Shown: positions 1-1,372 of the stretch, piece by piece | Numbering within the stretch: the first letter of the stretch is position 1 | Layout of the letters: the number at the start of each line of letters is the position of its first letter | NCBI GenBank assembly: GCA_024636215.1 | Contig: JAGXHL010000088.1 | Location: 1-5,981 of the forward strand | Length of the DNA: 5,981 bases | Origin: Deltaproteobacteria bacterium | Lineage (GTDB): Bacteria > Desulfobacterota > Desulfuromonadia > Desulfuromonadales > BM103 | Direction of reading: 5' to 3' | Notes under the pieces: generated by a model | Databases searched by the model: none | What the model saw: only the letters and a program-made list of their open reading frames with translations | Told to the model about the DNA's origin: nothing | Translations under genes and position numbers: made by a program

Positions 1-75
1 AGCCTGCAATGGTTGTCGCGCGTCAGGGTGCTGGTCCCAGAATTCACGGAGAGTTTTGCGGGAGATGACGCGCAT
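1..75 (-). CDS. higB: HigB-family mRNA interferase toxin, N-terminal fragment
   Basis: The first 25 codons of a gene that runs off the left edge. The peptide begins MRVISRKTLREFWDQHPDA, which matches the conserved opening of HigB-type toxins (RelE-superfold, ribosome-associated mRNA endonucleases of type II toxin-antitoxin systems). In higBA operons the toxin gene comes first and the antitoxin higA follows, so higA would lie beyond base 1. The start codon is fixed by the family's conserved N-terminus. There is no Shine-Dalgarno sequence before it, and a good -10 box lies only 6 bases upstream, so the mRNA may be leaderless. The gene points away from the integron integrase and sits just past a recombination core, the position expected of a first integron cassette. 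Catalytic residues are outside the window, so activity cannot be judged. Family assignment is from recognition of the N-terminus alone. Confidence 0.8.
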   Translation of the reverse strand, partial: MRVISRKTLREFWDQHPDARQPLQA

Positions 76-81
76 GGGTGA

Positions 82-110
82 AGTATACCTCGATCCCATA
101 ATGGGAGCAA
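82..110 (-). promoter_or_regulatory. higB promoter with palindromic operator candidate
   Basis: On the minus strand TTGCTC (105-110) is separated by 17 bases from TATACT (82-87), a good sigma70 match. The spacer contains a perfect 13-base palindrome with a single central base, TCCCAT-A-ATGGGA (94-106). A palindrome inside the promoter is where an autoregulatory HigA-type antitoxin would bind, but that role is inferred. The expected transcription start is at or next to the higB ATG (75), leaving no 5' leader. A private promoter is typical of toxin-antitoxin cassettes in integrons, which do not depend on the array promoter. Confidence 0.6.
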
Positions 111-134
111 GTATCAAATTGAATAGATTTTACG

Positions 135-141
135 GCTTAAC
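135..141 (-). other. Candidate attI recombination core (GTTAAGC)
   Basis: On the minus strand the seven bases GTTAAGC fit the integron core GTTRRRY, where recombination occurs between G and TT. It lies 268 bases from the intI start and 60 bases before the higB start, in the orientation expected for the junction between attI and a first cassette. Nine bases before it in this orientation is CCTA, at the same distance as I recall in the simple site of class 1 attI1. GTTRRRY is short and occurs by chance elsewhere in the window, so the call rests on location and orientation. Confidence 0.5.
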
Positions 142-162
142 TAGTAAATAGGTGGAAAAAAT

Positions 163-255
163 GCGGTCTAATAAGTACAAGCAGCTTGCGAGGGAATCAG
201 GTTTTTCATGCTTGATATCAGTATGATAGGAGCCCCCCTCCAGGATTTAGACCGC
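163..255 (-). repeat. Inverted repeat, possible decayed attC or attI-associated IntI site
   Basis: Two perfectly complementary 9-base arms, GCGGTCTAA (163-171) and TTAGACCGC (247-255), enclose 75 bases. Read in cassette direction the outer boxes are GTCTAAA and ATTAGAC, each one base away from the attC boxes RYYYAAC and GTTRRRY. The mismatch in the second falls on the G at the crossover point. Inside are further self-complementary pieces, CAAGCA (178-183) with TGCTTG (209-214) and the palindrome TGATATCA (213-220). The structure could be an inactivated attC, accessory integrase-binding sites of attI, or chance. Confidence 0.35.
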
Positions 256-274
256 GCTGTTCCCGCTGCCACGC

Positions 275-303
275 AGCATAGAACGCCCGCCGAGCCGTCA
301 CAA
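275..303 (-). promoter_or_regulatory. Candidate cassette-array promoter (Pc)
   Basis: On the minus strand TTGTGA (298-303) is followed after exactly 17 bases by TATGCT (275-280). Each hexamer matches four of six sigma70 consensus positions. It fires through the attI candidate into the presumed cassette array, the job of Pc. A 5-bp hairpin GCTGC-CAC-GCAGC (265-277) overlaps the -10 box. In class 1 integrons Pc lies inside intI, whereas in several chromosomal integrons it lies between intI and attI, as here. Functional assignment is inferred from position. Confidence 0.35.
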
Positions 304-409
304 AATTGACCGGAACGTGAAAGCTCTTGATTTTTATATCATTCTAATGTTTTCTTAGGCAACTGTTTGTTTCGTATTTGCTATTGATTTCAGTCTATTG
401 GAGGGGAGC

Positions 410-1372
410 ATGGAAAAACCACGCCTGTTGGACCAGGTCCGGTCCGTCATCCGCATTCGTCATTACAGCCGTCGCACCGAAGAAGCTTATACCTACTGGA
501 TTCGCCAGTTCATACTCTTCCACGATAAACGTCATCCCGCCGAGATGGGTAAGGTTGAGGTCGAGAGGTATTTAAGCTGGTTGGCCGAAAAAAGGAATGT
601 TGCGGCATCGACCCAGAACCAGGCTTTGAACGCCATCCTGTTTTTGTATCGGGATGTTCTTGAGCTGGAGATGGGGCGTCTCGAAGGCGTGACCAGAGCT
701 AAAAAACCAAAGCGATTGCCGGTTGTCCTGCCCCGCAATGAAGTTCGTAGCATCCTCAACAGTATGAGCGGCCAATCGCGCCTGGTGGCGTCGTTGCTGT
801 ATGGTGCCGGATTGCGTCTGCTCGATGGTTTGCGCTTGCGGGTTCAGGATATCGATTTTGAAGGGTGTGAACTCTTGATCCGCGATGGCAAGGGGGGCAA
901 GGATCGCCGGACCATGTTGCCGCAAAGTCTGGTTTCGCCTTTGCAGAGCCATCTTGAGCAGACCCGGCAGCAGCATGTTAATGACCTGGCGCTGGGCTTT
1001 GGCAGTACTCTGTTGCCTAACGCGCTGGGACGGAAGTATCGGAATGCAGAGCGTGACTGGCGCTGGCAGTACGTTTTTCCTTCTTCAAAACGCCGGCATG
1101 ACACGGAAAAGGATGAGTGGCGCCGACATCATCTGCACGAGTCGGTGGTGCAGAAAGCCGTGAAGCAGGCGACGCTCAAGGCGGGGATTATGCACAAGGT
1201 CGGCCCGCACACCTTCCGCCACTGTTTTGCCACCCACCTGCTGGAAGATGGCTACGATATCCGCACGGTGCAGGAGCTGCTCGGCCACAAGGATCTGAAG
1301 ACGACGATGATCTACACGCATGTTCTGAACAAAGGCGGCAAAGGGGTGCGCAGCCCGCTGGACAGCGGGTAA
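410..1372 (+). CDS. intI: Integron integrase IntI (tyrosine recombinase)
   Basis: A 320-residue site-specific recombinase that inserts and excises gene cassettes at attI and attC sites. The N-terminal SAM-like core-binding domain covers about residues 1-95 and the catalytic domain about 100-320. The catalytic set is complete: R136 (GAGLR), K161 (GKGGKDR), H267 and R270 (PHTFRH), H293 (LLGHKD) and the nucleophile Y302 (MIYTHV), all at a constant offset of ten from IntI1 as I recall it. Residues about 200-245, including ALGRKY and RRHHLHES, form the extra patch that separates IntI from XerC/D-type recombinases. The C-terminal GGKGVRSPLD also matches IntI1. The ATG at 410 is preferred because GGAGGGGAG (400-408) precedes it; an in-frame TTG at 398 has no ribosome site. 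No convincing sigma70 promoter or E. coli-type LexA box was found upstream. The gene is intact and probably functional. It converges on the oppF-like gene with a 31-base gap. Confidence 0.95.
   Translation: MEKPRLLDQVRSVIRIRHYSRRTEEAYTYWIRQFILFHDKRHPAEMGKVEVERYLSWLAEKRNVAASTQNQALNAILFLYRDVLELEMGRLEGVTRAKKPKRLPVVLPRNEVRSILNSMSGQSRLVASLLYGAGLRLLDGLRLRVQDIDFEGCELLIRDGKGGKDRRTMLPQSLVSPLQSHLEQTRQQHVNDLALGFGSTLLPNALGRKYRNAERDWRWQYVFPSSKRRHDTEKDEWRRHHLHESVVQKAVKQATLKAGIMHKVGPHTFRHCFATHLLEDGYDIRTVQELLGHKDLKTTMIYTHVLNKGGKGVRSPLDSG
1354..1369. other. GC hairpin at the 3' end of intI
   Basis: CCCGCT and AGCGGG pair perfectly around the four-base loop GGAC and end at the intI stop codon. No T-run follows on either strand, so it is not a clear intrinsic terminator, though it could slow convergent transcription between intI and the oppF-like gene. 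It lies within the SPLDSG codons, so coding constraint may explain part of it. Confidence 0.25.

What the first reader, a model, noticed from the sequence alone, without database searches (positions are those of the whole stretch)
1..1372. Integron platform with a HigB toxin cassette in first position
A complete integron integrase, a GTTRRRY core in the correct place and orientation, and a divergent HigB-type toxin gene 60 bases past that core fit intI - attI - cassette 1. Toxin-antitoxin cassettes are known to stabilise large chromosomal arrays, usually scattered in the array; here one would sit right at attI, where it is most exposed to excision. The array itself would lie left of the window.
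Basis: partly seen in the sequence, partly recalled or inferred. Interest (0 to 1): 0.75.

Follow-up and report, generated by a model that had tools for sequence, protein, structure and literature searches.

The report
Chromosomal integron with HigB-type first gene
This is a bacterial gene-capture platform (an integron) whose first stored gene appears to be the start of a toxin-antitoxin pair; both parts are of known kinds and the placement is a little unusual but not surprising.

Summary
Bases 410-1372 encode a complete integron integrase. Bases 75 to 1 (minus strand) encode the first 25 residues of a HigB toxin. A GTTAAGC core lies between them (141-135, minus strand). The core motif alone is at chance level. 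Comparison makes it attI: three relatives have a block ending in the same GTTA 266-286 bases from the intI start; one contig ends there, and in the other two the similarity fades there. One of them has 16 attC sites beyond its attI. oppF adjoins intI in two other genomes, so this looks like a sedentary chromosomal integron. Most of the 59-base gap is the toxin operon's own promoter- and operator-like leader, found at homologues elsewhere. higA directly follows higB in 31 of 32 homologous loci. One distant homologue sits between two attC-like sites; a close one runs into half an attC. But most homologues examined show no attC, the three attI relatives have no HigB-family match, and the window ends inside higB, so higA, attC and the array were not seen. 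Best reading: a higBA cassette in first position. New member of a known kind.

The parts
410..1372 (+). intI, complete integron integrase, 320 aa, with tyrosine-recombinase motifs (GAGLRLL starting at residue 132, GKGGKDR at 160, HTFRH at 267, GHKDL at 292, YTHV at 302)
   Evidence: which residues are catalytic is recalled, not from a call
135..141 (-). attI core GTTAAGC, expected cut between G and TTAAGC
   Evidence: same place and orientation in L001, L118, L119; motif alone at chance; cut position from a passage in PMC8876359
138..184 (-). attI block, 83% identical to L001 over 47 bases (that contig begins at this core); also seen in L118 and L119
76..134 (-). leader of higB: about 15-20 bases without similarity to homologues, then CTTGCTCCCATTATGGGATC...TATACT, read as -35 / operator palindrome / -10 of the higBA operon
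   Evidence: pattern shared by homologues at other loci; the generic promoter scan found nothing, so 'promoter' is inference from conservation
1..75 (-). first 25 codons of higB (HigB family toxin), cut by the window edge
1404..2399 (-). oppF-like ABC transporter ATPase, chromosomal neighbour of intI; beside intI also in L122 and, as far as that stretch reaches, L118
2399..3361 (-). oppD-like ABC transporter ATPase, next neighbour, also in L122

Best explanation
A sedentary chromosomal integron of a Desulfuromonadales-like bacterium: intI, then attI, then a higBA toxin-antitoxin cassette as the first cassette of an array that runs left out of the window. Shown: a complete integrase with its motifs, a comparatively supported attI, a HigB N-terminus at the first-cassette position and orientation, and a conserved promoter/operator-like leader. 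Inferred: higA follows, an attC closes the cassette, and the integrase placed it there by attI x attC recombination. The operon would be driven by its own HigA-repressed promoter, so it does not depend on the array promoter; loss of the cassette would leave HigB unopposed and select against cells that lose it.
For: TIGR02249 461 bits. Core 268 bases from the intI ATG, 267 in L118, 286 in L119, 266 in L001; without gaps 28/44 and 31/44 bases agree up to the cut and 15/40 and 13/40 after it (L118, L119); L001's contig starts at GTTA of the core. L118: 16 attC matches beyond attI; G024, with oppF and oppD next to its partial intI, has 14 attC matches. higA directly follows higB in 31 of 32 homologous loci. 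G482/L188: an attC-like site before the leader (5 of 7 outer pairs) and a 112-base attC after higA (24 bits, E 1.3e-3). G044: higBA runs into an attC left half (80% over 50 bases, E 2e-5; alignment score 44, best of 1280 shuffles 31). Leader conserved.
Against: No attC, higA or second cassette can be seen in the window. Of five loci whose HigB is at least 84% identical to G044's (that one included) four, G024, G128, G421 and G201, show no attC behind higA. G044's half attC was not reported by the attC model nor by the structural scan. The structural scan found sites in 2 of 32 loci, one weak, against 3.1% of shuffles, so on its own it is near chance. G001, G011 and G023, the relatives with attI, have no HigB-family match. 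In 69 first or second ORFs beside 53 intI loci no toxin-antitoxin family was among those displayed.
Confidence: 0.8

Rival explanations
1. The platform is a real integron with attI, but the array is lost or never grew, and higBA is an ordinary chromosomal operon that happens to adjoin attI.
For: G024, with the same integrase kind and oppF-oppD beside it, carries the closest higBA DNA match (84%) on another contig, between ordinary-looking genes (judged by eye) and without a detectable attC.
Against: Similarity to relatives fades at the core, which an unrelated junction would not be expected to hit; G023 and G024 have many attC sites; the G482 copy looks like a cassette and the G044 copy like a former one.
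Confidence: 0.15
2. The first cassette holds a lone or decayed higB rather than a working higBA pair.
For: Only 25 codons are seen.
Against: The leader and start are intact and conserved; higA directly follows in 31 of 32 homologous loci.
Confidence: 0.04
3. Assembly chimera joining attI to a higBA from elsewhere.
For: An assembly of a relative breaks at this place: L001's contig begins at the core.
Against: A join at the core, in the correct orientation, is what recombination would give.
Confidence: 0.01

Closest known systems
higBA cassettes of the Vibrio cholerae superintegron (Christensen-Dalsgaard and Gerdes 2006; seen only as cited in passages of PMC4909258 and PMC7370490)
   Same: a HigB-family toxin-antitoxin unit as an integron cassette
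   Different: different host lineage; here next to attI; higA and attC not seen
Sedentary chromosomal integrons (passages in PMC11023631 and PMC8618304)
   Same: intI, attI, chromosomal neighbours, lineage-typical attC sites in relatives
   Different: array outside the window; size unknown
higBA between two attC-like sites in genome G482 (L188)
   Same: same HigB family (66% identity to G044's HigB), leader with palindrome and TAT box, higB before higA, attC after higA
   Different: not beside an integrase in the stretch read; its genome gave only partial integrase-like matches (best E 3.2e-20)

Membership tests
Integron integrase (IntI) | TIGR02249 over its cut-off | tested here: met
   460.9 bits against 265
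Integron integrase (IntI) | catalytic R, K, H, R, H, Y present | tested here: met
   motifs located; alignment to 2a3v; the list of residues is recalled
Integron platform | attI next to intI, core in the right orientation | tested here: met
   conserved block ending at the core in three relatives; motif alone at chance
Integron platform | at least one attC beyond attI in this organism | not testable with these tools
   window ends 134 bases beyond the core; no longer record reached
Integron platform | attC arrays in relatives with the same integrase | tested here: met
   16 attC matches in L118, 2 in L119; 10 and 1 of these were used to build the model
HigB toxin (PF09907) | Pfam profile match | tested here: inconclusive
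   25 residues only, no profile hit; 64% over 25/25 to annotated HigB
higBA operon | higA directly after higB | not testable with these tools
   outside the window; 31 of 32 homologous loci have it
Integron cassette | ORF followed by its own attC | not testable with these tools
   outside the window

The most novel reading that the evidence does not exclude
A toxin-antitoxin cassette held long-term in first position acts as a lock at attI: cells that excise it or replace the array head die, so the platform is guarded at its entry point rather than along the array.
Probability: 0.07. Interest if true: 0.6.

Novelty: new member of a known kind. Interest (0 to 1): 0.3.

Why it matters
It adds an environmental lineage, probably Desulfuromonadales, to integrons with toxin-antitoxin cassettes. 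The same kind of higBA appears in fetched genomes between two attC-like sites (G482), next to half an attC (G044) and without any detectable attC (G024 and others), so this lineage could show how such units move between arrays and chromosome.

Tried and rejected
The GTTRRRY motif as evidence on its own: rejected, 8 found and 8.6 expected. A generic promoter scan of 1-420: nothing. LexA-type boxes with up to 2 mismatches: chance level, 25 against 20 expected. A degraded attC behind G024's higBA, suspected by eye: no model match at E<=5 and not among the six best, so dropped. A first attC search with strict GTTRRRY ends gave 5 candidates in L118, one passing the filter, because many sites end in GTTATGC; looser rules and a covariance model replaced it. 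Extending the window: no whole genome, no close match among genome contigs (best 79%), no viral contig with the junction pattern. Papers: five searches; passages only were seen in PMC11023631, PMC4909258, PMC7370490, PMC8618304, PMC8876359 and PMC8191803. In those passages I saw no higBA reported at attI; that is not a claim that none is in print.

The first-ORF baseline started from 78 intI loci with a matched N-terminus; 60 were distinct with 500 bases or more upstream; 53 of these gave 69 ORFs within my length and position limits (count repeated). The tables displayed 25 of 26 Pfam and 25 of 27 NCBIfam families, so up to one Pfam and two NCBIfam families are unseen. Not all these ORFs are cassettes (HypB and L28 are among the matches). 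In the higB survey 30 of 39 matches (35 of 395 genomes) came with loci; one is G044 again.

The odds of the main reading are unchanged; those of a chimera were lowered so that the odds sum to one.

Full report
What is in the window. The + strand frame 410-1372 is a full integron integrase: 320 residues, TIGR02249 at 460.9 bits against a cut-off of 265, Pfam Phage_integrase and Phage_int_SAM_4, and IntI4 (PDB 2a3v) as the best solved relative. The expected motifs are present. To its right, on the minus strand, lie oppF- and oppD-like ABC ATPase genes, then a DUF2270 membrane protein gene (+) and an MltD-like lytic transglycosylase gene (-). To its left, on the minus strand, an ATG at 75 opens a frame that runs out of the window after 25 codons. 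It matches annotated HigB toxins over all 25 residues (64%, E 4e-5); Pfam and PDB searches with so short a piece were silent.

Is the core attI? The motif alone proves nothing: GTTRRRY occurs 8 times in the window, 8.6 expected, and 24% of shuffles of the intergenic stretch have one on that strand. Relatives decide it. The closest integrases with DNA at hand and their upstream side present are in L001 (79%, a Desulfuromonadales MAG), L118/G023 (79%) and L119/G011 (76%). All three have a block ending in GTTA at this place; the core is 268 bases from the integrase start in the window, 267 in L118, 286 in L119 and 266 in L001. Against L118 and L119, aligned without gaps, 28 and 31 of 44 bases agree up to the cut and 15 and 13 of 40 after it. 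L001's contig begins at this GTTA, with 83% identity over 47 bases, as expected where assemblies break at variable cassettes.

Is there an array? Not in the window, and no record was reached to extend it. In relatives, yes. A covariance model from 13 attC sites of four genomes found 16 attC sites in L118 and 2 in L119, and none in the window, which offers only 134 bases for one. The building sites match by construction: 10 of those 16 and 1 of those 2. With the model, 9 of 10 chosen genomes had matches, among them 29 in G023, 15 in G011, 14 in G024 and 3 in G001; G021 had none. oppF and oppD stand beside intI in G024 (L122), and the end of oppF beside intI in G023 (L118). In L001 and L119 none of the four neighbours was found in the stretch held, so the neighbourhood is kept in part of the clade only.

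What is the toxin gene? A 141-base query of leader and higB start matched 7 of 136 genomes at E<=0.01, four of them well (75-84%). Similarity begins about 15-20 bases after the core. There the leader carries CTTG.TCCCA....GGGA.C....TAT..T, kept in all 10 loci aligned. I read this as the operon's own promoter with an operator for HigA; the reading is inference and a generic promoter scan does not list it. higA directly follows higB in 31 of 32 homologous loci; L165, cut by its contig end, was left out. The HigB family occurs in 16 of 136 genomes of the order; G001, G011 and G023, the attI relatives, are not among them.

Is it a cassette? For: in G482 (HigB 66% identical to G044's) a higBA lies between an attC-like 62-base site with 5 of 7 outer pairs and a 112-base attC (the latter 24 bits, E 1.3e-3), the layout inferred here. 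In G044 the higBA (77% alike in DNA) runs at the end of higA into the left half of an attC of this lineage (80% over 50 bases, E 2e-5; of the ten attC copies tried there one passed E 0.05 at this place). Against all 16 attC left halves of L118 this stretch scores 44, where the best of 1280 shuffles scored 31 and the next best of the 32 loci scored 20. Against: the model and the structural scan do not report that half site. The other close copies (G024, G128, G421, G201) have no detectable attC after higA. The model found one site in 33 higB loci; the structural scan found sites in 2 of 32, one weak, with 3.1% of shuffles scoring. So most of the higBA loci examined show no attC, and what makes the window's copy a probable cassette is above all its join at the attI core.

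How unusual is the placement? In 69 first or second ORFs from 53 intI loci, no toxin-antitoxin family was among the families displayed (one Pfam and two NCBIfam families were not displayed, and not all these ORFs are cassettes). Toxin-antitoxin cassettes are nevertheless common in integrons (PMC7370490 passages) and carry their own promoters (PMC11023631 passages). New cassettes enter chiefly at attI in V. cholerae (PMC8191803 passages), so a first-place toxin-antitoxin cassette may only be the latest arrival.

Verdict. A real sedentary-type integron platform (about 0.95), a real HigB start (about 0.9), a higBA cassette in first position (0.8). A new member of a known kind.

Noticed in passing
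window 3590-3782: Structured intergenic stretch before the DUF2270 gene (z -2.15); no Rfam match at E<=1; weak DNA similarity in 2 of 136 genomes.
   Followed up: partly
window 5591-5647: Perfect 18-base tandem repeat, 3.2 copies, in the N-terminal part of the MltD-like gene.
   Followed up: no
L164 5389-5437: Half an attC directly behind a higBA in a genome with no intI match at E<=1e-60, looking like a cassette stranded outside an array.
   Followed up: partly
L188: A higBA between two attC-like sites in genome G482; the sequence upstream looks like a transposase gene by eye (not searched).
   Followed up: partly
L118 11378-12582: ORFs that look like an IS3-type transposase pair (judged by eye) inside the cassette array between attC sites.
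   Followed up: no
P0014: An 82% identical integrase is named by its source as from Candidatus Competibacterales, a group I recall as Gammaproteobacteria: horizontal spread or a binning error.
   Followed up: no
G240 C7: Two higB matches about 1.3 kb apart on one contig.
   Followed up: no
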